From: Nereocystis luetkeana
Taxonomy: Eukaryota; Sar; Phaeophyceae; Laminariales; Laminariaceae
Reading direction: 5' to 3'
DNA length: 64,000 nucleotides
Assembly (NCBI GenBank): GCA_031213475.1
Contig: JARUPZ010000017.1
Span: 4,088,849 to 4,152,848, forward strand
Shown in pieces: positions 3,101-61,099 of this stretch. Below the pieces are notes generated by a model, which saw only the letters and a list, made by a program, of their open reading frames with translations, made no database searches and was not told where the DNA came from. Each line of letters begins with the position of its first letter. The first letter of the stretch is position 1. The translations under genes and the position numbers were made by a program.

Positions 3101-6100
3101 TTATATTTTGATTGATTTTAATGGGACTGATTGATGGATTGATGTTTGGGCAGTTTAATTCGTTGATTCATTCCGTGTAATTTTTGAGACTCGTTCAATA
3201 CATTCGCTAGAAATTCGGGCGTGTGCGAATCCGCCTTTTCAAGGGTGAACGGGCAAGCGGTAAAATGTCGGGCCAAACCATCAAACACGTAACCATGGAA
3301 GCGAGTCCCTGAGCGTTGGCAGAGCCGAAGTCAACAAAGAGAAAGGATAATATCCCCCACCCGTACTTCGCCCATTTTGTACTAGAATCAAGATCGAATC
3401 AGCCACAAATTGCGAAGAGCCCAAAGAGAGAAAACAAGGGGGGGGGTGAAAATTACAACACTCTGGGCGTAAATGTAAATACCGTTTTTCTGTTTGTAGT
3501 TTCCTTGTTAGGTCTTTGTATTTTCCGCTCAGGGTGGTATTAATTATGGGCTGTAATAAATTATTTTCGCAAAAGAGGGACGCAAGGTGACAGCCTGCCA
3601 ATGCTCAGGGACTCGCTTCCTTAGCTACGTGTCTGATGGTTTGGTCCGACATTTTACCGCTTGCCCGTTCACCCTTGAAAAGGCGGATTCGCACACGCCC
3701 GAATTTCCAGTGAACAGAACCAGCATTTTACGACGGCAGGTTGTTGTTATGGGGGGCCATAGTAAATAGGGCCTACGGTACAGACAATAACCTCTACCAG
3801 GGTATGTATTTCCCTATTTTTACCAACAATATTTGGTCCTATTTACTATGGTCCCCCGTATTAATAGGACCCAGAATATATACTTCGAAGTATGCATTAG
3901 ACTGTAGGTCGTGACCTGTTTCAGGGGAGAACTGTTTCATTTCCCCTCTCTTCTCTCCCCTCCCCCCTCCCCCAGGAAGAACACCCTTGGATGAGAGAAG
4001 CCGTCAGCGACATGGGAGGCAACGGCAACTCCGGCGGCGAGCCCGCGATGGGAAAGGTCTGGTGCATCTCCGAGAGACCCGTCTCCCTCGCCGACAACCC
4101 CGACGGAGCACGCCTCCGGACCCTCGCTCTCACCACAAGAACGCCTTCCCAAGCTGAGGTTACCCACACCTCTACCGCTAGCCGGGGCGGTACCAGGAGC
4201 GGTGGTCGTGGTGGACGTGGTGGTGACTCGGGCTCTGGCTCGAGGTCTAGTTCGGGTTCGCGTGGTGGTGCAGCGACAGCGGTAGCCAAGCGCTCGAGCG
4301 GGGGAGGCGGTAGCGGTGGCGGTGGTGGCGGGGGCATCCTACAGCGTGCGATGAAGTGGCACAAGAGTAACCTCCACGAGGCTCGGCCCGTGGCTCCTTC
4401 CCCTCCTCTGGTCGCCTCCCCCGGTGGGTCGGCGGGTTTCCAGGGGGGGCTGCTGGCCACGAAGGTCGGGGAGGTGGTGCCCCTGCCCGAGCTGGGCACG
4501 CAGCTGTTCAGCGACAGGAGGGAGGTGCTGTGCTTGACGAGCGCCGGTATGCAGACCTTGATGAAGCTCCGACCGGTCGATCACTTGTATGATCTGCTCG
4601 CACATAACCAGGCTGAACGGGTGAGACGTGGGGTTTTTGTGGTTGGAGGCGGGGGTGATTGGGGGTTGGGGCGGAGGGGAGGGGGAGGGGGGGGGGGCGT
4701 ACTCGTTTGTTGCTCGCCTTTGTCATTTGACCTAGGCCCACGCATTCCTTTCTAGACGGGGCACCGTTCCTACTCCTAATAGAGAGAGGGTGGGGGGGTA
4801 CGGGTAGTGGACTGGGTCGGGGATGAGGGTAGGGGAGAATAGAGTGGGGGTTTGGGGGGAAGGTACGGTAGGGGAGGGGGGGGGGGGGGGTAATGGGGTG
4901 CGGGATTATGATATTTCGACTCGTAGCAGAGTTGATGTTTCCTACTTATATTTCTGTCGTGTTCCCGCGGAAGAGAGAGCTCGGGAGTCAACGCCCTTCA
5001 GCTGTTTTGATGAACAGAACCTTTATCCTCCACCTGAAGAGTTCACCATGAAAGTAGCGCCATAATTCGTGGGAAACGTGAAAGTCTGCCGATCCCCCAC
5101 CCCCTCTTATTTCCCCGTTGTACACCACCCCCGCTCCCCTCTCCTCCTCCCTCGTCCCGCTCCCCTCTCTCTTCCCTCTCCTCCCCTCCCCACACCTTTA
5201 TGTAACCCTAGTATACTTCCAAGTAGTTTGTTCCCAAAAACTTGGGGTGGAGTTCTACTAGAGGGGCGGGATATCCAAACGTGGGTTATGTGATACATGT
5301 TATTTATATGACCGATAATAGTGGTGCTCGTAATGTGTTCGACACGGTCCAGTTTTGTTTAGGAAATGTCGATTTGCCCCAACTACCGGTAGTTCCTTCC
5401 CAGCTGCAATTTTTTTTTCCGAGAATTTCCACAGGTGGACCTAGCATGGTCATACTGAACGCCATACAAAGCAAGTATATGGATTTAGGTATGCCCGGTA
5501 TCAATCGTAGGGCGGTTTAGTAAGATGATTACTAAAATGCCATAATACGGTTGTATGTGTACTTCGTGTAGGTATTATTTTACCTGGTACTATACTAAAC
5601 GCCATGTATTTATCGGATCCCAAATATTCTTGAGAGTGTCGAGTGTATAATGGCATAAAGAAGGTACCACCCGCGGGAATGTACCCGTTTTTTTTGTGAA
5701 AAGGGTCCTCATCTTCAATGAATATGGTTGATATTCCGATTATAACCGTTACACCTGCTCTTGATATTCATATATATATGAAGAATGCCGGAAACCCCCC
5801 CTCCCCCCCCCCCCGCCCACCTGTCGTGAAACAAAATAGTAATTCTAAAATTACCCGCCCTATCTTTTTATGTAAAAGGTGAGCCTCTTCTTCGACGACT
5901 TCAGCCCGGATCAGTCCGCGGCGATGTGCTTCGGCATCGCCTGCGGGTTGCCTAAAGACGCTGGAAGTGGCGGTGGCGGGAGCGGGGGGACGGGGTCAAT
6001 GTCCCCCCCTGGAAGAACGAGACCCTCCCCATCATCATACGGTGTCCCCAGCCACACGGTACGCGCCCGCGCGCTCGACGCGGCCGTACTGAACTGCAAG

Positions 6101-12100: not shown

Positions 12101-15100
12101 CCTTTCGAGACGGGTGGGCAGGCGGGCGGGCAGGGGGGGGGGAGAGAGAGACTACGGCAATAATCACCCAACTCGAGGGTAAAGTAAGAAAGGGGGGACG
12201 GGGGACTGGGGGGGGGGGAAAGAGGAGGGAGGGAGGGAGGGAGGGAGGGAGGGGGGTGAAGCGCGAGTTGGTGAGAGCGCAATGGAGCAACTCACCCTCG
12301 TGTGCGGTGGTGGGGATCAGCCGAGCAGAGACTGAGAGATACCATCGTCAGGGAGAAGCACCTGAGACTACCAGTGTCGACGGGTGGGAACGAGGGTCAG
12401 GCGTTTGTCAGAGAGACAGAGACTGCTGTACATGTACGAAATACCCCGAGTCCAAAGGGGAAAGGAGAGAAGGGCGGCGGGGTACTCGATTGGAGAGATG
12501 TACTCGATATTATGCATGGCCGTAGTCGTATGACCGGAGGGGTTGTGCTCATGCCATGCATGGCCGCAGTCGTACAAGGGTGCGACAACTGCTACCTACA
12601 ACTACTAGTCGCCTCTACAGTAACCACGAGCTGCACGAGTGCACCTCCTGCAACAGTATTAATGGTTTGCTCCCAAAAAACGAAACTTGCTCGAGAAACA
12701 TGTATTTTTTTTTCGAAATATTTTGTAAATATGTAAACATGTGCAGATACCTCTGTTAGCTGACTACGTCACCATTGTATATACGCACACGTCACGTTTT
12801 TTTTCCCCCACCTCTGCTTACCTTCTGCTTACGCCGCACCTGTTGCTGCGTGCTTAGTAAGTAAACCCATGTATGAGAATAACCAACAAGACCCTAAGCC
12901 TCACTTCTTGGGAGCCAATACGGGGGGCCATAGTTAATAGGACCTATGGTAAACATAAACACCTATATATTTAACCATGTTTACTAACAATTTTTGGTCC
13001 TATTAACTATGGTCCTCCGTAATAGTAAAATTGGGTTTTAACCCCTTTAGTACCGCAGTCCCGATTTGGGGACGAACCAGCCAAATTCCAACTGATTTGT
13101 CCCCAAAACGGGACTGGGGTCCTAAAAGGGTTGAGAAAGCATGATCAGCGGCAAGCGCTGCACTAAATGAAACGGCACTGGTTTATTTGTAGCCGTGGTC
13201 CCCGTCGGCGTCTGGTTGTCGTTTTAGCGACGTTTTGTTTTTTGCTCGAGAGTCGTCGTTTTTGATGAGCCCTCTCTATAAGTATCAACCTACCCCAAAA
13301 TATGGTTTCGACATCGATCAGCTTGTCATAGGTGTCGTTCGAAATAAAAAATAAAAAATAATAATGGGATTGACCCGTTTAGAACGGCACTCCTATTTTG
13401 GGGAGAAATCACTTGTAGTTAGAGTCAAGTGCGTACCTGTTCATGCACACTGCAGTATTTTCAATAGTGAGGCGTTAGTAACGAGGCGTGCTGCGACAGG
13501 GGTAGTTTTGCCTCCCTAAGCAAATATTTCTGACTGATCGGGCCCCTTAACATGATATGGTAGGAACACCATTCATGTTTTAACGATTTCACATCTCTCT
13601 TGTGATATGCCTGGGCTTCGGCGCGGTTCATCGGGTTTTCGTTTGCACTTTTCAGCTTTTGTTTAAAATCTGTTTTTTGTGGGTAAGGTATAGACGCCCT
13701 ATCCTATAATCAAGTCAGAAGAGCCTCTCAAAAAAATTGGCGCGACCCCTGTATGGCAAAAACACGCGTCTAGTGTTGACGTGGGTTGTTCGTCAGCTCA
13801 GGAACCCCGTCCGTCAGAAATGTTTCGGCCTAAGAAAATACTACCTGGTACACCCCACCTTCCTTCGCCGAGTATCACGAACTTTTTCCTTTTTTTTTCT
13901 TGCAGGAAAAAATGGCGGTGCTGTCGCGCGAGCTGTTGGCGCATAAGGCAAGCTTCGTTCTTCCCGTGGACACGCTGTGCATGGAGCTGCAGGCCATCGC
14001 CGACGCCTATTCCGATGCAGGCGGCTCGGTGAGACGTCTCATGCCGTGATCCCCAGAAGGCAAAAACATTGTTAGTCGGACGCGGGGGTGGTTTCTTGCG
14101 CCAAAATACGGCGCTCTGGTCCGGTTTGTTGGTGACCCAAGGTGCCGACTTTTTGTGTATTGCGTTTTGTTCGCGTGTTTAATGCGCGTTGACTTCAAGT
14201 GCTTCCGTTGCTTCCACCCAACGGCGTCAGACTTGCCCTGATACGTATTTACTAGAAACGCGAAAAGTGAACGTCTCGTTCTGTTATTTATTTAGTCTCT
14301 CAGTTCGCAAGTATCTTGTTAGCCCCACCTCCTCTTCCTCGTATCGACGCCGCCTCTGTGCGTGGTGCTCGCCCCCCCCCCCCCACCCCTCCCGAACGTG
14401 GTCACGCTAGAACGCACCCCAATTAATTCAAGCTTGTCTTCCGTTGCAAGTCCGATTCACGGGCGGTTAGTAGTAGAGGGTGCAGCTCACCCTTCATTCG
14501 ACTTTCCGAACAACCTCGCGTCCCGCTTTGCGCGCTTGGGGCAAGCGATGCGCGCCTGGTCGGTATGAAAAGCCCTACGCGCTCCGTTCCCGGTATTGCA
14601 AATAGGGATGCGAGGGTTTATGATATTACGGCTACGGCCATGCATCTACATGAGCACACCCTGCCCCCTGGCTCCGTCTCGAAAGGGATGCATGGTAAAC
14701 GGTCGAATGCCGAAGGCAAGCAACAAATGAGTACGCCCCCGCCCCCCCCTCTGCTCCGTCTCGAAAGGGACTCATGGTCAATTCAATGGTCATATGGCTA
14801 AAAGGCAAGCAACATGTGAGTAGGCTCCCCCCCCCCCCCCCCCCAAACACACGTGGTCCATCCCGGCATTGTATATAGGGACGCGAGGGTCTATGGTCAT
14901 ACGACTACGGCCATGCATGACATGAGAACCCCCCCCCCCCCACCCCCTGGGCTGAAATGCCTCATTTTTGTATCATGTGAACTCCCCCCCCTTCTACCAG
15001 GCGCCACCACTGTGCGTTGTTAAGGCATCAAAGGGGGCGGGAGTGTCGACGATAGCTCTGCTAGACGCGTACGAGTTCATGAACCGCAACCACTACCCGA

Positions 15101-17183
15101 GGGAGGATCCCATGAAGCTGAGGAGGTTCGAGGTGATGGTGGAGCTGCTGAGGTTGGCCGGTCTCGACTACAACGTGAGTTAAAAAAACAAAAACGAAGC
15201 AAAAAAACATGAATAGATGTGGTGTGTGTGATCCAAGCTTTCTTCCCTCGGGATTTATTTATAAAAGTGAAAAGAAAAAAAAAACAGCTGTTTGATCGAG
15301 GATGTCGTCGAACACTCATCTTTGCAAGCTGTGTCGGTGTGATACGTCGATCGCGCGTAATGCGGGGTTTTGTATGGCCTCGTGCCGGGTATACAGGTCC
15401 GTATCCGAGGAAGAAGACATCATCTGAAGCTGCATTTGTGGTTGATTTGGATTCCCGGTGGGTGTCGCTAAATCTGGAGAAGGGAGAGAGAATACAGCAG
15501 GCGTTCGCTTCCTCGTATCGTACCGGCTAGTCGTACTTCGTGCGAAGCGAAGAACATGACAAAAAAAAACTCTTGAAAGCTAAATAAGAACGAGGTAGCC
15601 ACCGCGCAGGGAACCGGGCAAGCAACACCGGCCAGCCCAAACGAGTGTATAGCCACCGTAGTTCGTACGCTTCCGCTTATAGTCTTGGGGCGAGACTTAT
15701 CATGGTACAGATGTCAGACCCACATATCTGTAATATAGAAATATCGTGGTCGGTGTTATCTTCCAGTCCCAGAGTTATTGAAACCTGTCCTGCTGACCTG
15801 GGACTGCGATTTTTTTGTGGCGATGAGTTAACGTGAGAAATGGCCAGCAATCGCTGTGTAAGTAAACACGGGGGAGAAGGGCTGGCGGTGCCGTATTTTA
15901 TGAGCTGCGTACGTACTCGCACGGAGAAGCTCAAGATATCACGAGAACAAAACAAGACTTTGGAAGGACACGATTTTTTTCCGCTCAATCCGACCGGAAA
16001 TAAAGGTAGCCCGAAACAAAATGTACTTGTAAAAGTACCGTACTAAACTATACCTGGTACCTGGTAGGCCGTAGTTGCTCGCTAGAGGAGCTAAGCCCAT
16101 TTAAGACCGCAGGTCCCCCTTCCCCCCCCCCCCCCTAGTAGGGATGCGAGGGTCTATGATCATACGACTACGGTCATGCATGAGATCGAGTACATCTCTC
16201 CCATCGAGTACACCCCCCCTCGTCTGCCGCCTCTTTGTGACTATGCACTACCTGCGAATACACTGATTACTTTGATGTTGTAGGTGGGGATACCGACGGG
16301 AAAAAAAAAATTATGAGGGGATACCGTAACGTTTACCAGGTACCGGTAGTAAGTAGTGCTCTAGATTCTAGCGAAAACACGATCGCTATCTTACGAGATT
16401 TAGATGGTGGCCACAAAAGACAAACAGGGAGGGGATATAAGCGATGCTGCTCGTACGCAAAACGGATGGGCGAAACGTTTCATGTAATGTGTATATGGAA
16501 ACAGCGTGATGAGCGTCCTAGTGCTAGAGGTGTCTCTAATAGGAGTAGGAACGGTGCTCCGCCTCGAAAGGGATGATTGGTCAATGATCAAATGACTAAG
16601 GCAAGCGAAAAAAATGGGTATCCGCACCCCCCTCCCCCTTGTCCGCAACGTATTCGCTATATGTTCATGCGCGTGCGGGGACACCGACGAAAAATGTGGC
16701 GCCCGGATAGATACTATATACCCCCCACACGAACTAACTACGAATAACCCCCAGTATTATGTAGATACTAATAAAAAAAACGCCTCCAGGGAAACCATAG
16801 CGCACCCCCACCCCCACCCCCAAAATCCAACGTGCGCCGTCACGGCATCGCAGGGATGCGAGGGTCTATGGTTGTACGACTACGACCACGCGTGATAGTC
16901 AGTACCCCCCCCCCCCCCCCCCCCCCGCCACCCTCCGCAACATGAACGTACTCGTTTTGTGGTTACTATTCAGGCGGGGACGCCGACGGAAAACGTTCGC
17001 CCGGAGAGGCTGGAGCGGCTGGCGCAAGACACGCACGGAGGCCTCGAGTCTGTCCGATTTTCGCTCGGCGGCGAGGCCAGTGTTCCCGACATGGAGGTTC
17101 GATACAAGGTGGAGGAGCTGAAGGTTCAGCTGGAGAGGCTGCTTCACTCTCCGCGATTTCCCACGCTCAAGCATCGATATTAG
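151..17183 (+). CDS. NUP155: Nucleoporin Nup155/Nup170 family, 12 exons, 5' end outside window
   Basis: Structural inner-ring nucleoporin of the nuclear pore complex. Exons read as 151-359, 2369-2945, 3976-4620, 5879-7783, 8305-8418, 9210-9398, 10229-10391, 10742-10997, 11794-12013, 13906-14028, 15001-15174 and 16974-17183 (TAG). Phases agree at every junction, giving 1594 residues in the window. Family landmarks appear in order: PSESKDISLVAVSNAGMRFY; LRLNMVHIRCPPP; LTSAGMQTLMKLRPVDHL; an FFDDFSPDQSAAMCFGIACG block; MHEMLFGLLE; KSLLLRIGTPSVERYL; RVDCLVKAISACHK; IVEPTQLYG...LWEGCLRLLQCC; SFVLPVDTLCMEL; LDAYEFMNR; and a C-terminal KVEELKVQLERLLH. These match metazoan Nup155 from the end of the beta-propeller through the helical C-terminus. 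It is longer than the roughly 1390-residue human protein because exon 4 and its neighbours carry Gly-, Ser-, Ala- and Gln-rich insertions. Exon 6 appears to use a GC donor. The true start and most of the propeller lie upstream. Confidence 0.93.
384..960 (+). repeat. Three G-run transposon fragments in NUP155 intron 1 (families A and B)
   Basis: Bases 384-545 and 848-955 are family B ends (GGCCGTAGT.GTATG, then CCTCGCATCCCTACAATGCC, then GGAGCACGTC.GG). Bases 640-830 are family A (GACCATTGACCACGCATCCC, TTTCGAGACGGAGCACCG, AGAGACACCTCC). Each begins beside a run of G followed by a version of GTACTC. Only non-coding sequence is visible. The rest of intron 1 to 2368 is AT- and pyrimidine-rich with one MITE. 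Confidence 0.75.
2117..2225 (+). mobile_element. MITE family 1, copy 1
   Basis: About 109 bp near-palindrome. Its ends TATTACGGG and CCCCATAGTA enclose inverted ACCATAGTTAATAGGACC / GGTCCTATTAAGTATGGT. Family consensus ends are TATTACGGGGGACCATAG and its complement, with TA as the likely duplicated target, as in Tc1/mariner-type MITEs. It lies in NUP155 intron 1. Confidence 0.9.
3005..3175 (+). repeat. Degenerate GATT/GGTT minisatellite in NUP155 intron 2
   Basis: Imperfect tandem repeats of TGATTGGT/TGATTGAT type follow the exon 2 donor at 2946. The same sequence type fills intron 4 (7850-8300), suggesting related repeats at two sites in one gene. Confidence 0.8.
3748..3865 (+). mobile_element. 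MITE family 1, copy 2
   Basis: Same terminal inverted repeats (GGGGCCATAGTAAATAGG / CCTATTTACTATGGTCCCCC), opposite internal orientation to copy 1. The internal part carries TACCAGGGTA where sister copies have a plain TA, i.e. a short insertion (see Part 2). It lies in NUP155 intron 2. Confidence 0.88.
4679..4790 (+). repeat. Family A transposon fragment beside the exon 3 donor
   Basis: A run of G then CGTACTCGTTTGTTGCTCGCC, and a family A body fragment (ACGCATTCCTTTCTAGACGG) begin about 60 bp after the NUP155 exon 3 donor at 4621. Truncated relative to the roughly 230 bp copies at 33.56 and 63.41 kb. The rest of intron 3 (to 5878) holds G-rich then C/T-rich low-complexity sequence and no gene. 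Confidence 0.65.
7850..8303 (+). repeat. Degenerate GATT-type minisatellite filling NUP155 intron 4
   Basis: Almost all of intron 4 is imperfect TGATTGGT/TGACTGAC/TGATCGAT repeats, running right up to the exon 5 acceptor (CTCGATTGCTGCCAG). The antisense open frame across it, rich in Asn-Gln-Ser, is a by-product of the repeat. Confidence 0.85.
8440..8890 (+). repeat. GTTGGTGGT-type low-complexity tract in NUP155 intron 5
   Basis: Imperfect GTTGGTGTTGGTGG and GGTGGT repeats with a G14-class run near 8695. Nothing else is seen until a family D fragment at about 8965. Confidence 0.85.
8965..9110 (+). repeat. Family D dispersed repeat
   Basis: Contains the order CTTTTCCGACACC, GACAGAGGGGTGGGTATATA, ACCAAAACCAAGATAAAA. 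The same order occurs at 44905-45025 and 62395-62540. No coding capacity is seen and the class is unknown. Confidence 0.5.
9625..9965 (-). repeat. Two family B transposon ends in NUP155 intron 6
   Basis: Reverse-oriented copies: GCATTGTAGGGATGCGAGGG then ACTACGGCCATGCATGA at 9632-9695, and a longer copy from about 9725 (CATATGCAAG, TAGGATGCAGCTCACCC, GCGCTATTGGTGCAAGC) ending in a C-run at 9956-9980. The C-rich stretch from there to 10215 leads into the exon 7 acceptor. Confidence 0.75.
10500..10680 (+). repeat. TGTATGATC microsatellite in NUP155 intron 7
   Basis: About 18 imperfect copies of CTGTATGAT. It leads into a GATC-rich family C tail (GCTCATGCTGCTGGGTGGGA) just before the exon 8 acceptor. 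Confidence 0.85.
11170..11770 (+). repeat. CTGCTGACGAA minisatellite, split by a transposon, in NUP155 intron 8
   Basis: Degenerate units of the type CTGCTGACGAA/CTGCCGACCAAAAAT run from 11170 to about 11418 and resume from about 11690 to 11770. The transposon at 11420-11679 sits between the two halves. Confidence 0.8.
11420..11679 (+). mobile_element. Short DNA transposon with 17 bp terminal inverted repeats
   Basis: Ends GGCGTTCTACGATAGAGG (11420-11437) and CCTCTATCGTAGAACGC (11662-11678) are inverted repeats. The interior has TTCTGGGGCTCTCC, TCACCCGAAAA and GTCATTCAGAAA. The same interior occurs at 61100-61425. Non-autonomous, inserted into the CTGCTGACGAA minisatellite. Confidence 0.8.
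12029..12115 (+). repeat. Family A fragment next to the exon 9 donor
   Basis: G-run, then GTACTTATTTTGTTGCTCG and GACGCATCCCTTTCGAGACG, starting only about 15 bp after the NUP155 donor at 12014. A G-rich GGGA repeat follows to about 12255, and a family B fragment (CATGGCCGTAGTCGTATGACC) at 12490-12575. Confidence 0.7.
12918..13027 (+). mobile_element. MITE family 1, copy 3
   Basis: TACGGGGGGCCATAGTTAAT ... ACTATGGTCCTCCGTAATAG, in NUP155 intron 9. The internal strand orientation is opposite to copy 1. Confidence 0.9.
13034..13136 (+). mobile_element. Palindromic MITE family 2, copy 1
   Basis: About 100 bp imperfect palindrome: AACCCCTTTAGTACCGCAGT, CCCGATTTGGGGAC ... GTCCCCAAAACGGGAC, CCTAAAAGGGTTGAG. 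A second full copy lies at 61173-61272 and half-copies near 13373 and 16090. It directly abuts MITE family 1 copy 3. Confidence 0.8.
13455..13740 (+). repeat. Transposon-like repeat shared with 30.6 kb
   Basis: GGCGTGCTGCGACAGGGGTAG at one end and GGTATAGACGCC at the other. TCATCGGGTTTTCG, TTTAGC-type and AAATCTGTTTTTTG blocks inside recur in order at 30612-30900. Unknown class, non-coding. Confidence 0.5.
14460..14930 (-). repeat. Cluster of family A and B transposon ends in NUP155 intron 10
   Basis: Reverse family B copies at 14460-14670 (GGTGCAGCTCACCC, GGGGCAAGCGATGCGCGCC, GGATGCGAGGG) and 14870-14930. Reverse family A ends (CCGTCTCGAAAGGGA, GGCAAGCAACA.) at about 14680-14830, each ending in a C-run. 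The exon 11 acceptor follows at 15000. Confidence 0.75.
16130..16915 (-). repeat. Family B, A and B transposon copies in NUP155 intron 11
   Basis: 16135-16215 and 16840-16915 are reverse family B ends. 16395-16640 is a near full-length reverse family A copy (GATGGTGGCCAC, AGAGGTGTCTCTAATAGGAG, GCCTCGAAAGGGATGATTGG). C-runs mark the outer ends. The rest of intron 11 (15175-16130) shows nothing recognisable apart from AT-rich sequence and a doubled TACCTGGTA. Confidence 0.8.
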
Positions 17184-17614
17184 TACTCCTGAAAGTATAA
17201 TTTTGGTGTTTTTCTGCTCTTGGTTTTTTTTTTTTTTCTCTCTTGTTTTAAGGCTGCTGATGGTGTTTTTTTTTCTCTCTTTTTTGAGTGGGCGAAGGCG
17301 TGGGCGCTCGTTGTGTTTTACACGTACCTGGTAAAGTTTTTTTTGTTTTTGCTTGTTTTTTTTTTTGCGCTCGTTTTTGTCTCGTTATTTGTGCGCTCTG
17401 GTTTTTTTCCCCTTCTTTAATGAAATATGTTTGCGCTTGCTTTTGCGCTTCGCGCGTGCGCTTACATGTTGTTGTGTTTTTTTTTTTCTTGATTCTTTTT
17501 TTCGCGTGTTCTTCTGATACTCTTCAGTTTTCGCTTTCGATCTTTGAGAAAAAAAAAGGAGTTGTCGGTGCTCGTTAGGGTGTGCCCGTTAGTAGGTGGG
17601 TGCGGCGGGTGGGT

Positions 17615-17648
<34 letters not shown>

Positions 17649-20605: not shown

Positions 20606-21149
20606 ATGTATGGTGTAAGCCAACATATCGTAGTGGAGAGTAGCGTTCAACCACGTGCCTGGTGTTCGAGAAAATGGTTGGCATGCACTATTGCGAACGA
20701 TACGGGGACGTTCGTGTTGTTATTCTCGCGTTAACTCGCGCCCAAAACATTCGAGTCCGTGGGGTCACAGGACAGGCTCTCCGAAAAACTGAAGCGGGGA
20801 AAAATACCCTTCGGGGAAGAAAAGATAGCAGTGTTATACGAGTAGCCAAATCAAAATAATACCTGGTACTGTTCATAAAGCAGTCGTATACACGTCATGG
20901 CTGAAGCACATCGTAGACGTCAGACAGGGAAACACTCGAACATCCCTTGCACGAGTTGTACTGTAGCCTACAGCAACAGTCCAACGGGGCCGCATACAAG
21001 AAACGAAACGAAAAAAAAGAGCGAATGTAACTAACTACCCCTGACCCCAACCCCAAATCAACCAATCAATCAAATGTGCACGCAGGGCTGGATAGTCCCT
21101 CTTCGCCTCGAACCTAGTGTTTTGTCAAACGTTTCACGCCCGAGGGACA

Positions 21150-27900: not shown

Positions 27901-28013
27901 TATAAGGGGGGGGCATAGTAAATACCTGGTAGGACCTACGGTACGCACAAAAACCTAAATATTTACCTATTTTCACTTACAAATTTGATCCTATTTACTA
28001 TGGTCCCCCGTAA
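27901..28013 (+). mobile_element. MITE family 1, copy 5, with internal 7 bp insertion
   Basis: GGGGGGGCATAGTAAATA then CCTGGTA then GGACC, where sister copies read AATAGGACC. The far end is ACTATGGTCCCCCGTAA. The insertion is a CCTGG plus duplicated TA (see Part 2). Confidence 0.9.
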
Positions 28014-28641
28014 CACAACCATGCGTATCAATAGTAGTAGCTGTAGTGGTTTCCGTTTCGCAATAAAGCCGTTTCGTGGCGGCAGCATCAAATAAAGTGG
28101 GGGCGGCGGGGGGAGGGGCGGGGGCGAGAATTGTCGAAGCGACCTAAACTCGGCGACTTTCGGCGGCGGCAGCAGCAGGCACGGTTGTGCCCGCAGGAGA
28201 CGCTCGACGGAATGCTCGGTGGGAAGGGGAGCTTGAAAGGGCAACGCCGGTGTTAAAGCCTTGGGGCGGTCTAGGGTTCCCCAAACTCATTGGGGGGATT
28301 TCTAATAATAGCAAGAATCGGTACGTACTACCAGGGTACATCGCTTGTCGGGCCTGCTGCCCTGCTAGGGGACCGGTTTGGGGAGCACTCCGACTTTGAA
28401 GCAACTTCTCGTGTCCCATTCCCACCGCCCAGGGGTCGCGTCTACTTCCGCAAACACGTCAAGCCGGCTCGAGGGCGGCCCCCATTTTGCGACGGGAATC
28501 GATAGTCGAAACAGAGAGCATCAGCCGCTGCCAAGTCTCAGCTTCGCGGGTGCCCTCTGCCCTGTGCGTAAATATTACCCAAAACTCACAGTATTATATT
28601 GTGGAGAAGGTGTTACTTGCTCTGAGCTACCCCCCCCCCCC

Positions 28642-35712: not shown

Positions 35713-35781
35713 ACCCCCCACCCCCCCAGCCGCTCCCCACCATGCTTTCGTATTGTCGCCCCACCGCCTACATGCACGAAC

Positions 35782-45052: not shown

Positions 45053-48000
45053 TTATAGTTGTTTCCAAATCCGACATGGTGGCGATTGTGAGTTCCGTGA
45101 GTTCCGGTTTCTCTTTTTTTTTTGCGTACCCCTGCCCCCCCCGCAACAGCGTGCCTCATCAACATATATATATATATATATAAACACACCTTTCACCAAC
45201 TCCGCGCGCTCGAGCGGCACCCCAGAAGCCTGCGACAGTGACATTATCTCCTCCACTAGCTCCGCCGCACGTACGCCTCTCCCAGCCTTGTGGCAGGCCG
45301 AGATCGCCGCCGACAGAGACCCGGAGTCCGGGGCCACCCCGGCGGCAGGCATCTCCTTCAACAGAGCCAGAGCCTCTTCCCACAGCCCGCTCTTTCCGCA
45401 CGCCGTAATCGCGGCGTTGTAGCTGGACACGGTGGGGGCGATCCCGACCGCTTGCATCTCCCAGAGAAGCTCCACGGCTTCTTTCCCCTGGCCGCATTCG
45501 CCGCAGGACCGGATGGCCGAGAGGTAGCTGGGCATGGTGGGGGTGATGCCACCCTCGACCATCTCCCTCAGCAGCTCCACGATGCGGTCTCCCTGGCCCC
45601 CGTTTCCGCAGGCCATGATGGCAGCCGAGTAGGTAAGCTCCGTCGGGGCCAACCCTTCCTCCGACATCTTCCCCATGAGCTCGAGGGCTTGTTCGACCTC
45701 GCCGCAGTTGCCCAGCGCCGCGATCGCCGCGGTGTAGGTCACCACCGTCGGGGTTACGCCGTCCCCCGGCATCGCCCTCAGGAGGGCCAGCGCCTGCTCC
45801 CACTGCCCACCTATCCCGCAACCGGTGATGGCAGCGTTATAGCAGAACTCGTTCGCCGGCAAGCCTTGCCCCGGCATCTCCCTCAACAGGGTCAGCCCTT
45901 CCTCCCATTGGCCGCTCTTACCGCACGCGGAAATTGCGGCGGAATAGCTGAACGTGTTAGGCGCGACCCCCGCCCCCTCCATCTCCCTCAGGAGCGCAAC
46001 TGCTTGATCTGCCTCGCCCGCCTGCCCGCACGCGCGGATCGCCGGCGAGTAGCAGACGGCGCTCGGGTCAACCCCGGCCCCCGGCATCTCCCGCAGAAGC
46101 GCTAATGCCTCCTCCCACTTCCCGCCGTTCGCGAGGGCCGATATAGCGGCGGAATATGTGATCGCGTTCGGCGCCACGCCCGCCGCCGGCATCTCTCTGA
46201 GCAGCGTGACCGCGGCACCCCACTGGAGGGAGTTCCCCAGCGCGGTGATGGCCGAGTTATAGCTTATGACATCCGGGGTTAGACCCACGGCCGACATCTC
46301 CCTCATGAGTGCAACGGCCTCATCCCCCTTTCCGCAAGTACCGCAGGCGGCAATGGCGGTGTTGTAGGAGATAACGTTGGCCTCCACCCCCGGGGTCGAG
46401 GACATCTCCCGGAGGAGCTTCACGGCGCGCTCCCACTGCCCCCCCTTCTCGCAGGCCGAAATCGCGGCGTTGAAGCTTCCGCTCGCGGGGGTAACGCCTC
46501 CCACGGTTCCCATCTCCTCGAAGAGCTCCAGGGCCTGCTCCCACTTGTTTGCCTCCGTGCACGCCGACATGGCTGCGTTGTAGCTGATGGAGTTCGGGCG
46601 GATACCGGCATCGGCCATCTCGCGCAGCAGGGCCACCGCCTTCTCCCACTGGCGGCTCTTTCTGCACGCGGAGATGGCCGCGGAGAAGCTGATCACGTCG
46701 GGGGAGAGCCCGGCGGCGGACATCTCGCGGAGGATCGAGACGGCTCGCTCCCCCTCTCCCGCCTTACCGCACGCAGCGATGACTATGTTGTGCGTGATCA
46801 CGTCCGGCTCGACCCCAGCCGTCTCCCGCATGTAGCGGAACAGGTCAAGTGCTTCTTCCCACCGCCCGCAGTCGGCGCAGGTGCAGATAGCCAGGTTGTA
46901 GTTGTACACGTTAGCGGGCTCCTCCCAGTCCCGTGTTTCCTTCACCATCGCGACCGCGTCCTGCCATCTTCCGGCAGTGCGGCAGGCGTTAGCCACGGCG
47001 GAGTAGGTGGCCCGGTTCGGCGCAACCCCCTTGCCCTCCATTTCCCGCAGCAGGGCCAGCGCCTCGTCGCTCTTGCCGCAGCCGCCGCAAACCTTGATGG
47101 CCGCGAGATAGGTGATCTCGTTAGGTTCCACCCCGAGCTCCGACATCTCCTTCAGCAGCGACATCGCGGTTTCCCACTCCCCGCCGCTCGCGCAGGCCGG
47201 GATGGCCGCGTTGTAGCTCACAACGTCCAGGGGTATGCCCGACTTCCTCGCGTCTCGCATGAGCTCGATGGCTTCCTTGCTCCGTCCGGCCTTCCCGCAA
47301 GCGTCAAGGGCGGCATTGACGCAGTACCTGATCCATGTGACACGGCAAGGGAGGGGTGGGGGGTTACTTCAGGGCCCAACGTTGCTTGACTGACAGAAGG
47401 GCTCTTGCGCCATAACTGGCCCATTCAAATTCGACGTACTTCGTCCCCAAAAGCGTGGAGGCATGTTCTGAAAGGGACCCAATATCTTCGCGATCCCGTT
47501 TGTCTCTTATATGCCGCGGGTACAATCTTATTCGTTACCCGGTACGAATCGCGACCAAAATATGTTCAGGAGACAGCACTTCCATCCCCACCTTCGACAG
47601 ACAACAAACTCGCCTTTTTCGTTTTTCGTTTTTCATCGTCACTTTTATATTTTCCAGCTTAATTCGTCGGAGGTTGTACCCTCAGCGATCTGCTGGACAG
47701 ACCGTGGCCACAGGTGTCGTCCCTTCTGCCCCCCCGTACGTGCCTTCACCTTTTTTCGCGCATAGGGGCCGGCATTCCCACTGCTCGTCGATTTTCCCCC
47801 AATGTTGCTAACTCACTCTCTCGCGCTTTCCGCTCATCAATTGTTATGCAAGAGGAAGTCCTCGTACGAGTATGCACTCGATGAGACTCGAACCACGAAA
47901 TTGACCTACCAAGCCACCGGGGACGCCGGCTACATACCATACTTTGCCTTGACTGGCATCAAACTACTACCCTGGTATATACCTGGTACAAGGTACCGGT

Positions 48001-48945
48001 AGTTTTGTTTCAGCGTGGAATAGTCGGCCCTAAAATTAACCCTCGGTAGCGCACGTTTTCGGTTGATGTGTCTCATGAACATGTTAGACCTGGTGTCACA
48101 CCAGGCTGGCACCCAGCAGCCAGAAGGGTGTGTATTCGTTCGTATGTACCTGGTACCCTGGTACATGTTTCTCCAAGACGTTTTTTTCGTTGGGGTATAG
48201 AGTTCCTCATGCCATCACTGCTGTCAATGGAAAGTAAAAAAAACGGGGTGCAGCACCCCCTCTACCCTTTGGGCATGATAACTCACCTGTTGGGCTCGAC
48301 CCCGAGCGCCGCCATCCTCGCGAGGACGTCCAGTGCCTCGCCCCACCGGAAGCACTTGGCCAGCCGGCTGATGCACATGTTGTATACGAACGTCGACACC
48401 CCGGCCTTGTCCGAGGTCGCACCTCGCGAGTGCCTGGCCCGGGCCTCGGCGATCTCTGCGGCGTCCAGTGCCGCCAGCACCGCCCTCCAGTCCTGCGCGG
48501 GCACCTCCCTGATCTTAGACAGCGCAATTTTCGATCGAAGGAGCGCCCTCGCGCTGGCACTGAGCTGCTTGCCGCGACCTGCTGCGCTGCCACGGTCACC
48601 GCCACCGCCGCGCCCACGGCCACGGCCTCCTCCTCTCGCTTTCACGCTCCTAGGAGCACCAGCAGCGGCTTTCTCTGGCACTCCAGCAGAACCTTCAGCT
48701 GCGGCACTCGCGTCTGGGGCCACTGCGCTCATATGTGCGAGCGGCGTCTTCTGTACACTATTATGAGACCATCCAGCGGTGCCGCACGCTGCGCGTGTCG
48801 ACGTACGTGGGCCGACGCCGTAGGCAAAGGCGCCGCCTGCTGCCGAGCCACTCGTCGGTCCGCTCGCCGAGGCGCGCCATCGGTACGTATGCGGAATCCA
48901 ACCGCTAATTTCTTGGCTCAGACCAGGAAGGGCTACGAAGGCCAT
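45053..48945 (-). CDS. P-type PPR protein (PPR-B), up to 977 aa, 21 motifs, head-to-head with PPR-C
   Basis: Exon 1 is 48945-48287 and exon 2 starts at 47327. CCAACAG|GTGAGT and GGATCAG|GTACTG join in phase (AG+G = Arg), restoring VEPNRYCVNAALDACGKAG exactly across motifs 1 and 2. The MAFVALPG start is preferred over an upstream in-frame ATG at 49002 because all three paralogues begin MAFV. After a Gly/Arg-rich linker comes the shared module (KIREVPAQDWRAVLAALDAA), then 21 contiguous PPR motifs such as ISYNSAITALGNSLQWGAAV. No editing-type C-terminal domain. Expected role: sequence-specific organellar RNA binding. The frame is open to 45053, but after ERAELVKG it crosses a TA microsatellite. 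A donor at AAAG|GTGTGT (45190) with an unseen last exon is more likely. Confidence 0.88.
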
Positions 48946-49144: not shown

Positions 49145-52100
49145 ATGGCTTTCGTCTCTCTCCCCACTGCTGGTCGTGGATCAGGGCATCTGACTGTTGG
49201 TGGTGCCGGACGCTGGTGGAACTATAGCGATCGCCGCGGTCGTTACCCCTTGTCGGCATCCATCGCGACACGTCCACCAATTGATAGAGCCAGTGCCGCT
49301 CGCCTGGGCGGTGGCGGTGGTGGTCAACCGCAGGATGGCCTTGCTCGCCACAGAGCGCGGGGTGCATGGACAGCAGGGACTGATGTGGCACGCGAGACGA
49401 AGAGGGTCGGGAGTGGTAACAGCGGACGGCCAAAGGGTAGAGTGAGGGGCACGGACAATCCGCACTCGAGGCGCTTCGTTCAGAAGGTATGTACCAGGTA
49501 CCGGTATGTGTTTTGGACGTAGCACGTTGCGTATGATACATTCCGACATGGACAGAGGTTACGAAGGCCAGACATGGGAAGGAGGGTAGACGGACAGACA
49601 GGCATATGGTTCCACGCATAGCTGAGTGGTAGCCACGCATTCCGCAAGAGACGCCATGGACACCTGTGACAACAGGCAGCTTGTTCAAATGTCTCCGTGT
49701 CTGTCACCACAGTACACCGCTGTAGCAGCAGGAGCAGGAGCGGCGACAACGGGTAGAGCACAACTACGAAGTACCTGGTAAGCAGCAGTACCACCACCAC
49801 CACCACGACCATCGCCACCACCACTGCCACCGCCACCACCACCAGAACTCAGCAGCAGCAGAACACTGAAGCAGCACTCGGCAGCAACAGCAGCAACAGC
49901 AGCAGTGTGTCTTAGCCGAAGCAGTAGCACCACGACACCAGCAAGAACAACAACACCAGTAGCTGTACAGCGCAGTGTGTATAATATACCAGGGTAATCC
50001 GTACCTACAGCAGTATTTCAAATTTCAAGTACAAAGGAAAGTCTTCATCGCGCGGGTAGAACACTACCGACCGATCTGCGTACACGCGAAACGGAACAAG
50101 AATCTGAAACGGAGGTGTTACCTACTATCTACCAGGTATTCATAGCCGTCCAGGGGACGTGTGTGCTGAAGTTGTACAGGCTGAATGCGCATCATACCTA
50201 CTTATGCCGCATACATGATGCTTGGAACTGCCTTGTTTTTCCGGACAGACAGGCTAAATTTGTTGCCCTCTCGCCCCGAAACCATGTGCGTACACCATCT
50301 CTGTACATACGCAAAAAAGGTCAAGGGCTTGGCGAGAGGGGACTGGAGGGGCGTCCTTCGAGAACTCGACGCGGCGGAGGTCGCGGCGGCTGCTAGCGTG
50401 GTGGTGGGGCCGGCGATGTCCATCGCGGCACCTGCAGCTGTTGGCGCGGGTACCGTGGGCACCTCGGGTATCGCGGGTACACCGGGTAAAGCAAGGACCG
50501 CGGGTACATCGGGTGCAGTGGGCGCCGCGACGGGGAAGCCCGCCCAACCGATGACCGTCTACATGTACACGGCGTGCGTGACGTCGCTGTCTAAGTGCGG
50601 ACGGTGGCGGGAGGCGCTCGAGACCCTGGACAGGATGACCGCGGCGGGTATAACCCCGACCTCGCACGCGATAAGCGCCACGATAACGGCGTGCGGGAAG
50701 GGGGGGCAAGCACAGGCGGGGCTTGACCTCCTAGAGAGGATGAGGAGCAGCGGCGCCTTGGAGCCCGAACTGTACTGCTTGAGTGCCGCGATCGACGCGG
50801 CGGGGAGGGAGGGGCGGTGGGAAGCGGCGCTGGCGCTGCTCGGGGATTTGCGGAAGGCGGGGATAAAGCCGGACAAGTTTGTGTACAGGTACGTCATACG
50901 GTGGTGGAGGGAATTGGACAAGTTTTCACACCTCGAACAGATCTTTACTCGACGATCTAGATCGGAGGGCAGATAGATCCCTGATCTGTATAATCTGTAT
51001 GATCTGTATGATCTAAAACTCATGTTGCTGGGTGGGAGGAAGTTTTGTCAAGGATTTGTAAAGCAGGTACATACATACGTAAGCGTAGGAAATTACAAGG
51101 CGCTTCGCTCCGCGGGCGGCCAACGCCGCCCGCTACACGCTCAGGAAGAAAAAGTACATCGAATTACGCGAAGCGGACAGAAGGTCGATGATTGAATATA
51201 TGTTTTTATGATTGTTGTAGTTGCAAACTGGCGACTTGATAATGCCAAGAGTCACATGCCGTACGAGTACGTACGTACGTTCATACCCCAGGGAGGGTAC
51301 TGATTTTCTTCTTTTGATATGCTGTATGTACCTGGTATGTACGAACGAGAAAGCACAGCATGCACAGCACCACCACCGCAAAAACAATGAAAATGAAACC
51401 GAAAAACTCGGAAAGAGAAAAAAATCCCCGTCCCCTCTCATGTAATAATCGTCTGCCCCTGGAACACCTTGCACCAGTCAAAGAATAAAAAAATAAAAAA
51501 ATGAACAGCAGAGCTTCTCTCTCAGCCTCGTACGCCGCCCGCCCCTCTCGCGACCACCTCGCCACCGATTCGGTCCGGGTAAAGCTTTCCTCCCTCTTTG
51601 TAACAGTGATCCCCGTCGCCCGCCCCGCGTGAAGCCCGGTGCTCACCGTGACCCTCGTTCTCCAGCTCGACGATGTCGATGGTCAGACGGCGTTCGTATC
51701 TGTGTACCTGGTATAATTCAGCGTGGTCGCAAAAATTAGCACCGCTTGAATGTTAGCTTGCAATCCCGAACGACCCTTATGGACTCGTACATACTCTGTC
51801 TATTTTTTCAGATGGAGGCAAAACAGAGCCCATTCATGCTTCCCTTGTGTTTCGAGGCACACACGACGCCTAGCCACGAAAACCACGACCGCGATCCTTG
51901 CACCCCCCCCTCTACCCGCCAGCATCCGCCGACACCCGCGACGGCGCCGGGCTCGCCCGCGTCGCCGCGCTTCGACTACACACACGCACACGAAACGGAA
52001 GAAAAAAGGAAAAAGTAACTGAAAGTGCAAAAGAAATTTCAACCAGCCGGTGAAAAAAAGCGAAAGAGAGCCTCCCAAACCGCTGAAAAAACAAAATCGA

Positions 52101-54882: not shown

Positions 54883-54919
<37 letters not shown>

Positions 54920-55660: not shown

Positions 55661-55669
55661 TTGGCCTGG

Positions 55670-56504: not shown

Positions 56505-56770
56505 CGCTTCATGATCTAGTTCTTTCAAGGCAGATATACTTCTGATCTGTCTGATCTACCTAGCTCATATTGCCGGGTGGGAGCCGAACTACCGGTATGA
56601 TCAAAGACACGTTTCCTGTGTCGGATCTGTACTGTACAGGTCCCGCGCAACATCTCATGACGGCAGGTTAGGATCTATCTGTAGATGACGTACTTGTAGA
56701 TGCTCTATCTGTAGATGGTCTATCTGTAGATGATGTATCTGTAGATGATGGATCTATAGATGATCTGATC
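56505..56770 (-). repeat. Family C dispersed repeat with GATCTATCTGTAGAT tail
   Basis: CATGATCTAGTTC, AGCTCATATTGCCGGGTGGG, TGTCGGATCTGTACTGTACA, GGTTAGGATCTATCTGTAGA, then a TATCTGTAGATGA microsatellite. A family B end follows at 56880-57005. 57010-58000 holds no recognised gene. Confidence 0.7.
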
Positions 56771-58000
56771 GGCGTGTGAAATGTTCTGCTCTACCCATGT
56801 GATGCCGGTTTTGTTGTTTCGTTTCACCATGAAGCGACGACACCACGGCAGAACGCCAATAATGCCCGCCGGAGGGAGGGGGGGTGTATACCCGATATCA
56901 TGCATGTCCGTAGCCGTACGAGCATGAACCCTCGCATCCCCATAGTGCCGGGGCGGAACACGTCAGTTTTCACCGACGAGGCAGGCATTGCTTGCACCAT
57001 AAAGCGGGGGGCGGGGGGGGGGTTGAAAACAAAACGCCTAAAAAAAACATGAGAACCACGTTCTAAAATGATATCACTTTCATCGTTCGCTTTGGCCTTC
57101 CCTCGAGGTGGAGTTAATTCCTCACCAGAAACGCTATAACGCGGGCACGTCTAACGGCGAGTGCTCCCTCCCCCCAAAATCCAAGAACAGCACTAAGCTC
57201 ATTGTATACTTCAGTACCAGGTACAAGGTATTATACTACTGTATTGGTACCAGGCATATAACCCTTCACTGAATGTTCGTTACAAATAAAAAATACCTAC
57301 CCGTGATGCTGGTTGCCAACCATTGTCGGTTTACGTCCTGCATCCCGTGTGACGCTGGTTTCTGTTCGAAATGAAAAGCGCCGACGAGGGAGGTGGGGCG
57401 TCTGTACGACAACAAACAACAAAAAGCGCAACGCCTCCAAAAGAGTGGGGAACAGCCGCGCTTTTACTCGATTGGGGCGTTGAAGCTACGAGCGCCTGAA
57501 ACAGCGATAACGTTTGTGTAGGCAACCGTCCACCAGCAGCGTCAGCATCTAGCCCAGCGGTACGGGTGGAATCAGGTTGCGCCCGCGCCGTGCATACGTC
57601 TCCTTGCATGTTGTAAGGCCCATTCATATCGAAGAATTTTATTTCCCCCGTAATTTCTCAAGTTTGAAAATATCCGAGCTGCCGGATGCACCTTCGTCCC
57701 TTCTGCATCAAGATTCGGAGGCGGAGGCGTTCTGTCACAATTTATGAAATCCTTCAGAAAGCAACTTTTTGTAGGAAAGTTAGATTTATCATTTTTGGAC
57801 ACAAAAATATCAGGGAACCCAGGACGATGAAAAAAGAAGCGTGAAAAAATGATGGAAATTATGGAGAAAAACAAACTCTCCGATAAGAATGACCCAGTAC
57901 AACTCGGTCACCATTTTTTTTTAAACCATCCCCACAATCGCACAGTAGCAGCTCCTGTAATAAGCGTCACTATGTATTTTTAAATTCCCCCTTGCTGAAC

Positions 58001-59568: not shown

Positions 59569-61099
59569 TAGCATGGGTGCCCTCTCTCCTCGCTTCGGCC
59601 AGACAAAGCAAAAGGCGTAAACGCCTCCAAACGGCAAGAGAACCACGCTATAAGCGGTGTATTGTATGTAGGCCTTCCACCTTTTTCGTTAGGGTTCTGC
59701 CTTCCCAATGAATGATGCCGGTATAGCTCACGAGAAGCGCCGACACTTGGGCACGCCCATGGTCTGGGCGCCCCACCTCTTCCCCTCGGCGACACGGACC
59801 GAAAAGAACACGCCTCAAAAGAACAACAAAAACCACGACGAAACCGTTTCATTTATTTCCTCCCATCACGCACAATACTCACCGTACGTACGCTGTATAA
59901 TACAGTCCGAAACTTGACCCCTTTTCTCACTATCCCGTTAAAAGAAGGTAGTGCGTCAACCTGATCGTACAAAACGTAAAAAAAAAAAAAAAAAAACGCC
60001 TCCCAAAGACGGGAGTTTAAGCCATGGGGCTGAACCAAGGGCTTGCTCACTGTTCATTACTCCAGCTGCAACACCCCCCGTCGCGTGCTGCCATCGCAAA
60101 ATAAAAGCTGGGCCTCGTTCTCAGTTGCCACTGCCCCAGTGTTGTGAATGGTCGACGAGCAGCAAAACTACAGCGAGTTTGTGCTCGGTTTTCGTGCATA
60201 TATATCACACAACAATCGAGCAAACATCGGTAAACATTAAAAGAGGTGCCCGCACTCTCTCCGCCCCCCCTCCCGGGTCCCGTTCCACGTCGCCAGCCCC
60301 CACCCCGCCTATATTCGGTCCACCGAACGCGATACTCCATATCATTTCTCATGTTTTATGTTTGCGGTTTCAGTTCTCTGTTGCCGGGAACTCCACCCAA
60401 TGTCTCCTCTTCGCTTGCTTCCGCTTTTTCTTGAGTTTCGATGCCTGGAAGGCGTAACAGGGGGGGGGGGGGGGGTGCGCGGGAATAAAAATGAAAACTA
60501 GTGGGCGGCAAACAGAGGGGACTACAACATGCAGCGCGTTAGTTCGTGACAAAGCAAACATGTTACCAGAAAGAAAAAAAAGAAACTATTGCATGATCAA
60601 CTACCTGTAAATATTGTAGGCGTGAACGTACGGTAGCTTCTACTAAAAATGGCGCAAGGGGTCTACTGAAGCAGGCGCAGCAACCTGTTTTCTACTGTGA
60701 GCAACGCTTGTTTGCCGCAGTAGGCCTGATCAGCCTATTGGTACTACGACCACTGTAGGCGCGAATCCCGTCTACTACAGTAGGCGAAGTGTATCTACAC
60801 TACAGTACCCTCGTAGTTGTAATACGCCTACTTACAAGCAGCAGGCGTAAAACCCGTGAACCGTTTACCGCAAGGCGGGGCGGGTAGAACACTTCAGCCA
60901 TATGCGCAATACATACTGCAGGTAGGTGCAGCACGCCTGCTGTACCAGGTACGCACAGTGTAGGTGCAATACGTCTACATACAGTACATGCAATGCATCT
61001 TCCTACCACAGCAGGCGTAAAAACCCGCTTTTCCTACAGTACGAGCAAAACATCTACGTGAACCATAGGCGCAGCAGTACGTCTACTGCCGCATCCTAT

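What the first reader, a model, noticed from the sequence alone, without database searches (positions are those of the whole stretch)
5581..60951. Palindrome TACCWGGTA is hugely over-represented and looks like a transposon excision footprint
I count 22 TACCTGGTA/TACCAGGTA sites: 5581, 13842, 16051, 16058, 16334, 17325, 20861, 22046, 27923, 28848, 29652, 30021, 34675, 47980, 48147, 49492, 49772, 50130, 51329, 51705, 57215, 60943. About 0.5 is expected by chance in 64 kb. There are also six TACCGGTA (5384, 16341, 17872, 47994, 49499, 56590; about 1 expected) and five TACCAGGGTA/TACCCTGGTA (3795, 28329, 47968, 48154, 49987; about 0.1 expected). None lies in an exon. Two sites have empty-site comparisons. 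MITE copy 5 reads AATA-CCTGG-TA-GGACC where sister MITEs read AATA-GGACC. The 28.8 kb arm reads CACGTA-CCAGG-TA-GTG where the 34.47 kb arm reads CACGTAGTG. So the motif is a CC(N0-2)GG insertion plus duplication of TA. The A/T ambiguity at the centre is what repair of mismatched overhangs would leave after cut-and-paste excision of a TA-targeting element whose ends start CC...GG, comparable in kind to Tc1/mariner footprints.
Basis: partly seen in the sequence, partly recalled or inferred. Interest (0 to 1): 0.88.

Follow-up and report, generated by a model that had tools for sequence, protein, structure and literature searches.

The report
180,000 transposon scars, parent element missing
A short palindrome that litters this eukaryotic genome appears to be the scar left wherever a TA-inserting transposon jumped out again, and the scars are so numerous that they would record a huge burst of jumping by an element we could not find.

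Summary
The window has 22 TACCWGGTA, 6 TACCGGTA and 5 TACCAGGGTA/TACCCTGGTA. The unnamed 465-Mb eukaryotic host genome has 182,395 TACCWGGTA against 1,744 for the reversed control.

The motif is an insertion at TA. Relatives of the same repeats lack it: 22 of 22 other MITE copies at 27923 and 7 of 8 other copies at 28848. A satellite array carries TA, TACCAGGTA or TACCAGGGTA at equivalent TAs. One MITE TA carries different scars in different copies. The flanks show a palindromic target preference, shared by the variants CCAG, CCGG, CCAGGG and CCATGG but not by CCCGG or CAG.

Best reading: excision footprints of a TA-targeting cut-and-paste transposon with a 5-nt self-annealing overhang CCAGG, a longer version of Sleeping Beauty's TACWGTA scar; pairing one base out of register explains the main variants.

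One correction: TACCAGGTA and TACCTGGTA are reverse complements, so the A/T "ambiguity" alone shows nothing. However, both forms do occur at one oriented TA.

Not shown: the parent element. No convincing terminal inverted repeat starting CCWGG was found in the parts searched.

The parts
5581..5589 (+). TACCTGGTA scar
13842..13850 (+). TACCTGGTA scar
16051..16066 (+). nested double scar TACCTGGTACCTGGTA (sites 16051 and 16058)
16334..16348 (+). nested scar TACCAGGTACCGGTA (sites 16334 and 16341)
17325..17333 (+). TACCTGGTA scar
20860..20868 (+). TACCTGGTA scar (finding says 20861)
22046..22054 (+). TACCAGGTA scar
27923..27931 (+). TACCTGGTA scar inside a MITE; 22 of 22 other copies lack it
28848..28856 (+). 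TACCAGGTA scar inside a dispersed repeat; 7 of 8 other copies lack it
29652..29660 (+). TACCTGGTA scar
30021..30029 (+). TACCTGGTA scar
34675..34683 (+). TACCAGGTA scar
47980..47988 (+). TACCTGGTA scar in a cluster
48147..48163 (+). nested scar TACCTGGTACCCTGGTA (sites 48147 and 48154)
49492..49506 (+). nested scar TACCAGGTACCGGTA (sites 49492 and 49499)
49772..49780 (+). TACCTGGTA scar
50130..50138 (+). TACCAGGTA scar
51329..51337 (+). TACCTGGTA scar
51705..51713 (+). TACCTGGTA scar
57215..57223 (+). TACCAGGTA scar
60943..60951 (+). TACCAGGTA scar
5384..5391 (.). TACCGGTA (variant class; by the reversed control over a third of such sites genome-wide are background)
17872..17879 (.). TACCGGTA variant
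47994..48001 (.). TACCGGTA variant in a cluster
56590..56597 (.). TACCGGTA variant
3795..3804 (+). TACCAGGGTA scar at the hot TA of a 99-bp MITE (copy 3750-3858, 10 bp longer than the norm)
28329..28338 (+). TACCAGGGTA scar
47968..47977 (-). TACCAGGGTA scar (reads TACCCTGGTA on +)
49987..49996 (+). TACCAGGGTA scar
24732..24741 (.). TACCATGGTA, rare variant predicted by the slip model
39292..39301 (.). TACCATGGTA, rare variant predicted by the slip model

Best explanation
TACCWGGTA is the excision scar of a cut-and-paste DNA transposon that inserts at TA and duplicates it. Proposed steps: the transposase inserts the element at a preferred palindromic TA (W-A-n-n-n-Y-R-TA-Y-R-n-n-n-T-W); on excision it cuts the non-transferred strand 5 nt inside each end, leaving 3' overhangs CCAGG (or CCTGG) on both flanks; the two overhangs anneal to each other through C:G, C:G, G:C, G:C around one mismatched A:A (or T:T); repair gives TACC(A/T)GGTA. 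Annealing one base out of register gives CCAGGG/CCCTGG and CCATGG (longer) or CCAG/CTGG and CCGG (shorter). Repeated use of good targets gives nested scars. Shown: insertion at TA, a shared target preference, the variant set, the abundance. Inferred: that an element was there, its end sequence, the 5-nt stagger, the annealing step.
For: Abundance: 182,395 against a 1,744 control. In a scan of all TA-x-TA in 264 kb, CCAGG is by far the top 5-mer, 99 against 2.4 expected. Insertion: the CCWGGTA class was the commonest 4-12 bp gap between repeat copies (7 contexts; the next classes have 5); the 9 motif-bearing gap listings reduce to 4 separate sites. Window sites 27923 and 28848: 22 of 22 and 7 of 8 other copies lack the insert. 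Satellite L023: half-unit A has TA 3 times and TACCAGGTA 9 times; half-unit B has TA 3 times and TACCAGGGTA 8 times (units amplified, so not independent; one diverged unit at 6853 and one cut at the end left out). MITE hot TA: 4 of 26 copies carry different inserts at the same TA. 60 reads at AAAAACCTA followed by CC (of 100 listed places, of 4,561 matches): 42 are MITE copies by a word test, with CCAGG 21, CCAG 4, CCAGGG 3, CCTGG 3, CCGG 2, CCACG, CCGGG and CCACGG 1 each, no clear scar 6; the other 18 lie in other sequence. Empty form of that site 5,821 exact copies, CCTGG-filled 307. Target preference appears independently on both sides. A weight matrix trained on 98 non-nested CCAGG flanks, palindromes counted once, nested sites removed, also fits CCAG (30 sites, p 2e-6), CCGG (15, 0.0013), CCAGGG (12, 7e-5) and CCATGG (4, 0.0007), and not CCCGG (13, 0.4) or CAG (121, 0.98). 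Counts against expectation in 311.5 kb: CCAG 31/10.3, CCGG 19/5.0, CCAGGG 13/0.93, CCATGG 4/0.32; the unpredicted blunt product CCTAGG 0/0.24.
Against: No parent element was found. No convincing terminal inverted repeats starting CCWGG in 264 kb (the best pair matched 7 of 11 further bases) or around 8 of the 28 DDE_1 (pogo-like) matches, two of them extended. DDE_3 gave 0 hits; Transposase_1 gave 0 hits with a silent control, so uninformative. I recognised no unexcised end in the 60 hot-TA reads. CCAGG outnumbers CCTGG 21 to 3 at the hot MITE TA, where random mismatch repair predicts 1:1; amplification of already scarred copies could explain it but was not tested. Two products that the slip model also predicts are poorly supported: CTAG is enriched (10/2.8) but its target preference is not significant (p 0.053), and CCCGGG (2/0.48) has none (p 0.9). 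CCCGG is enriched (13/3.1) without the preference and is unexplained. GGACC, meant as a control, also scores high (p 7e-8); it lies in the MITE ends. The joined-flank scan found empty counterparts for 3 of 85 CCAGG and 1 of 13 CCAGGG sites but 0 of 16 CCGG, 0 of 22 CCAG, 0 of 4 CCATGG, and ordinary repeat strings such as CGAC (9 of 25) scored higher.
Confidence: 0.78

Rival explanations
1. Scar made without a resident element: a TA-specific transposase or nuclease cuts preferred TA sites and short CC/GG ends are added or captured during end joining, so the 7-bp unit itself is the inserted thing.
For: No parent found in the searches made; no unexcised element recognised in 60 hot-TA reads; one site, L024, has TACCAGGTA where relatives have TATCACGTA with no length change.
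Against: Needs a fixed donor sequence CCAGG; the TA duplication and the variant set are what paired element ends would leave (inference).
Confidence: 0.12
2. Same footprint idea, but with a 3-nt overhang CCA or CCT as in Mos1 or Sleeping Beauty, joined with one-base overlap.
For: SB and mariner transposases are described as cutting three nucleotides inside (PMC7827188, passages); CCWGG can be built from CCW plus WGG with one shared base; CCATGG occurs (4 against 0.32).
Against: Predicts simple TACCATA/TATGGTA scars (48 against 40.9 expected) and CCATGG or CCTAGG as major products (4 and 0); gives no reason for CCAGGG and CCAG.
Confidence: 0.15
3. A conserved protein-binding palindrome.
For: Palindromic, very abundant, with palindromic flanks.
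Against: Related repeat copies lack it as a clean TA-duplicating insertion, and different variants sit at one TA.
Confidence: 0.01
4. Hitch-hiking: the motif is part of a few high-copy repeats and is counted many times.
For: True for part of the counts: the satellite in L023 and some MITE copies carry it repeatedly.
Against: 12 of 14 window sites tested have no usable relative spanning them in 27 sequences of over 5 kb; only 4 separate sites sat in repeats with an informative gap. The sample is a small part of the genome, so this is limited.
Confidence: 0.03

Closest known systems
Sleeping Beauty (Tc1/mariner) excision footprint TACWGTA
   Same: TA target duplicated; short palindromic remnant with a central A/T; [quoted passage not shown]
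   Different: Here the remnant is 5 nt (CCWGG), not 3 (CWG), with one-base longer and shorter variants; no transposase or ends identified; a very large natural number per genome.
Mos1-type mariner
   Same: TA target; Mos1 ends begin CCAGG (recalled, from no call).
   Different: Mos1 leaves 3 nt (recalled; PMC7827188 passage says SB and mariner cut three nucleotides inside); the CCA-type scar is hardly enriched here (48 against 40.9).
pogo/Tigger-like elements
   Same: TA target (recalled); DDE_1 transposases are present in this genome (28 matches).
   Different: Passer, a pogo element, leaves 0-4 bp (PMC9976928, passage); none of 8 loci inspected here shows ends starting CCWGG.
Mariner-Tc1 families of Ectocarpus
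   Same: A brown-algal genome with almost 12,000 Mariner-Tc1 copies, mostly non-autonomous (PMC12477816, passages).
   Different: That paper's main text does not contain words starting with footprint or excision; whether the present host is a brown alga is my inference.

Membership tests
Tc1/mariner superfamily | Insertion at TA with TA duplication | tested here: met
Tc1/mariner superfamily | Footprint of 2-4 bp | tested here: not met
   Main scar is 5 bp; 4-bp CCAG and CCGG are minor. Range quoted from a passage of PMC7913693
Tc1/mariner superfamily | Palindromic target preference around TA | tested here: met
   the Tc1/SB consensus used for comparison is recalled
Tc1/mariner superfamily | Element with terminal inverted repeats matching the footprint | tested here: inconclusive
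   None found in 264 kb or around 8 of 28 DDE_1 matches; this is not a whole-genome search
Tc1/mariner superfamily | Transposase encoded by the element | tested here: inconclusive
   DDE_3 0 hits, DDE_1 28 hits not linked to the scar, Transposase_1 uninformative
Excision footprint of a TA-targeting cut-and-paste element (as a kind) | Empty sites exist; scar is a short insert plus TA duplication; heterogeneous at one site | tested here: met
Excision footprint of a TA-targeting cut-and-paste element (as a kind) | Full-length element at the same site in a relative | not testable with these tools
   No sister genomes are held (output says it has no relatives here)

The most novel reading that the evidence does not exclude
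An undescribed TA-specific transposase lineage with a 5-nt stagger has swept this genome so often that its scars (about 180,000, roughly one per 2.5 kb and 0.3% of the genome) far outnumber its surviving copies. The scars form a genome-wide fossil record of target choice and of end-joining outcomes, written by an element that is now rare, lost, or supplied from outside.
Probability: 0.45. Interest if true: 0.85.

Novelty: new variant of a known kind. Interest (0 to 1): 0.74.

Why it matters
To my knowledge excision footprints are mostly studied a few at a time, in reporter assays. Here one genome holds about 180,000 with a readable target motif and repair spectrum, some inside repeats where the empty site is known. 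That makes target choice, overhang length and germline end-joining of a transposon testable from sequence alone, and it raises the question of how an element can cut and paste so often and leave so few copies. Searching for this scar class could reveal past transposon activity that element-based annotation misses.

Tried and rejected
Tried without result: inverted repeats with TA flanks in 264 kb, which found the CGGGGG MITE and other repeats but no convincing CCWGG pair; joined-flank search over TA-x-TA strings, too few repeats to rank classes (CCAGG 3 sites, while some other strings score higher through ordinary repeats); transposase families; terminal repeats around pogo-like loci; a protein search for the organism's identity (switched off). 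Rejected: protein-binding site (insertion shown); TACAGTA as a second footprint of the same system (over-represented, 124 against 46.5, but no target preference); CCCGG as a slip product (no target preference). Superseded: the first weight-matrix test counted palindromic classes on both strands and kept nested sites; the figures given are from the repeat without these faults, in which CTAG is no longer significant. Not obtained: genome-wide counts of TACCAGTA and of the CCAGG-filled hot site, so only the CCTGG-filled count is known.
Full report
Observation. The window holds 22 TACCWGGTA, 6 TACCGGTA and 5 TACCAGGGTA/TACCCTGGTA at the stated places, one coordinate off by one. The window lies in a 465,085,209-bp assembly of 1,987 contigs. 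It carries long PPR-repeat ORFs; with the genome size and base composition this suggests a brown alga or relative, but that is my inference and I could not test it (one search was switched off). Genome-wide there are 182,395 TACCWGGTA against 1,744 of the reversed word, 11,422 TACCAGGGTA against 409 and 25,126 TACCGGTA against 9,325. That is about one TACCWGGTA per 2.5 kb. In 264 kb (window plus 20 stretches of 10 kb), CCAGG is by far the most over-represented 5-mer between two TAs (99 against 2.4); per-locus density ranges from 0 to 0.9 per kb.

A correction. TACCAGGTA and TACCTGGTA are reverse complements. The meaningful test is a TA whose orientation is fixed by surrounding repeat sequence; see the MITE below.

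It is an insertion at TA. Alignments between repeat copies (791 alignments, 264 kb) gave the 7-bp CCWGGTA class as the commonest 4-12 bp gap (7 contexts, next classes 5). The nine motif-bearing listings collapse to four separate sites: window 27923, 28848 and 3795, and L018 about 7056. I joined the flanks of 14 window sites (10 TACCWGGTA, 1 TACCAGGGTA, 3 TACCGGTA) around a single TA and searched 27 sequences of over 5 kb; two sites have relatives spanning them. At 27923, 22 of 22 other MITE copies lack the insert. At 28848, 7 of 8 lack it (one of these reads TG for TA), and L024 has TACCAGGTA replacing TATCACGTA without a length change. The other 12 sites have no usable relative. A broader joined-flank scan found empty counterparts for 3 of 85 CCAGG and 1 of 13 CCAGGG sites, none for CCGG (16), CCAG (22), CCCGG (12) or CCATGG (4), and higher numbers for some ordinary repeat strings. 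A satellite array (L023) gives a natural experiment: in one half-unit the same TA is bare 3 times and TACCAGGTA 9 times; in the other it is bare 3 times and TACCAGGGTA 8 times (a diverged unit at 6853 and one at the end were left out, and amplified units are not independent).

Different scars at one TA. A 99-bp TA-flanked MITE has 26 copies in the sample then held; four carry inserts at the same internal TA, with four different remnants (CCTGG decayed, CCAGG, CCGG, CCAGGG; the last copy is 10 bp longer than the norm, so it has a further small change). The string AAAAACCTACC, that TA followed by CC, occurs 4,561 times against 298. I read 60 of the 100 listed places. By a word test 42 are MITE copies: CCAGG 21, CCAG 4, CCAGGG 3, CCTGG 3, CCGG 2, CCACG, CCGGG and CCACGG 1 each, no clear scar 6. 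The other 18 lie in other sequence, including three identical copies (L064-L066). The search string requires CC, so remnants starting otherwise are not seen. The empty site AAAAACCTATATATTTA occurs 5,821 times and its CCTGG-filled form 307 times, both with zero controls; the CCAGG-filled count was not obtained. So both orientations of the remnant do occur at one oriented TA. The excess of CCAGG over CCTGG in the reads is unexplained; amplification of scarred copies is one possibility.

Target preference. Aligned on TACCAGGTA, each side independently shows the same mirrored preference: R at -1 and Y at +1 (each over 80%), A at -6 and T at +6 (about half), and A/T at -7 and +7 (about 80%) (background of all TAs). 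After removing the insert this is a 16-bp palindrome centred on TA, the kind of signal left by a dimeric transposase choosing a target (inference). Nested scars are more common than independent insertion predicts: 10 runs in 264 kb, where about 1.5 would be expected from 99 sites among 14,003 TAs (my arithmetic).

Mechanism. Sleeping Beauty leaves 3-nt 3' overhangs, and its scars are identical to those overhangs (PMC7827188, passages), with consensus TACAGTA/TACTGTA (PMC4378557, passages). CCAGG is the same design lengthened: five bases that pair with themselves except at the centre. If the two overhangs pair one base out of register, resolving the two mismatches from either strand gives CCAGGG, CCCTGG, CCATGG or CCCGGG (longer) and CCAG, CTGG, CCGG or CTAG (shorter). 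In 311.5 kb the counts against expectation are CCAG 31/10.3, CCGG 19/5.0, CTAG 10/2.8, CCAGGG 13/0.93, CCATGG 4/0.32 and CCCGGG 2/0.48; the blunt product of a 3-nt CCT overhang, CCTAGG, is 0/0.24. A weight matrix learned from the flanks of 98 non-nested CCAGG sites was used as a further check, with palindromes counted once and nested sites removed. CCAG (p 2e-6), CCGG (0.0013), CCAGGG (7e-5) and CCATGG (0.0007) carry the same target preference. CTAG does not reach significance (0.053), CCCGGG (2 sites) does not carry it, and neither do CCCGG, CAG, CCG, CAGG, CCC and CGAG. One control string, GGACC, also scores high (7e-8), but it lies inside the MITE ends. Thus the main variants fit the slip idea, while two of its predicted mixed products are not supported.

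What is missing. I did not find the element. No convincing inverted repeats starting CCWGG were seen in 264 kb. DDE_3 gave no hit. DDE_1 gave 28 hits, of which 8 loci were inspected and two extended; none had such ends. Transposase_1 gave none, with an uninformative control. I recognised no unexcised end among the 60 hot-TA reads. The sample read is about 0.06% of the genome, so an element of a thousand copies could easily have escaped it.

Known or new. The library search for TACCWGGTA found no paper. TACCAGGTA occurs in 119 papers, of which the 20 listed look like chance occurrences judging by title and start of abstract. A search on brown alga with transposon, footprint and excision listed 7 papers, none apparently on this by title and start of abstract. 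I therefore call it a new variant of a known kind: footprint-like in the respects I could test, longer than the 2-4 bp quoted for Tc1/mariner (PMC7913693, passage), and not filed under any family because the element is unknown.

Noticed in passing
window 2122-2220, 3750-3858, 12921-13019, 25325-25423, 41643-41741, 58006-58104, 58408-58506, 59464-59562: A 99-bp MITE family with ends CGGGGG...CCCCCG flanked by TA (26 copies in the sample); an internal 17-mer has 5,821 exact copies genome-wide.
   Followed up: partly
L023 about 820-6900: A satellite of about 528 bp made of two related half-units, both hit at the equivalent TA by different scars, then amplified.
   Followed up: partly
L024 about 760-1000: A repeat copy with TACCAGGTA in place of TATCACGTA, no length change: the spacer between two TAs looks replaced.
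   Followed up: no
window and L001-L026: TACAGTA/TACTGTA is also over-represented (124 against 46.5) but lacks the target preference; part may be simple repeats.
   Followed up: partly
G000:C2, C809, C872, C1099, C1378; C34:4445281-4448513: Five DDE_1 matches with identical scores and three in-frame TAGs on five contigs, and two matches in opposite orientation 2.4 kb apart on C34.
   Followed up: no
window 35521-38097, 45053-47260, 53102-54586: Three long ORFs made of pentatricopeptide repeats.
   Followed up: no
window: The words GTAGGGTAGG/TACCCTACCC are strongly repeated (27 and 28 in the window, counting both strands), i.e. stretches of short GGGTA-like repeats.
   Followed up: no
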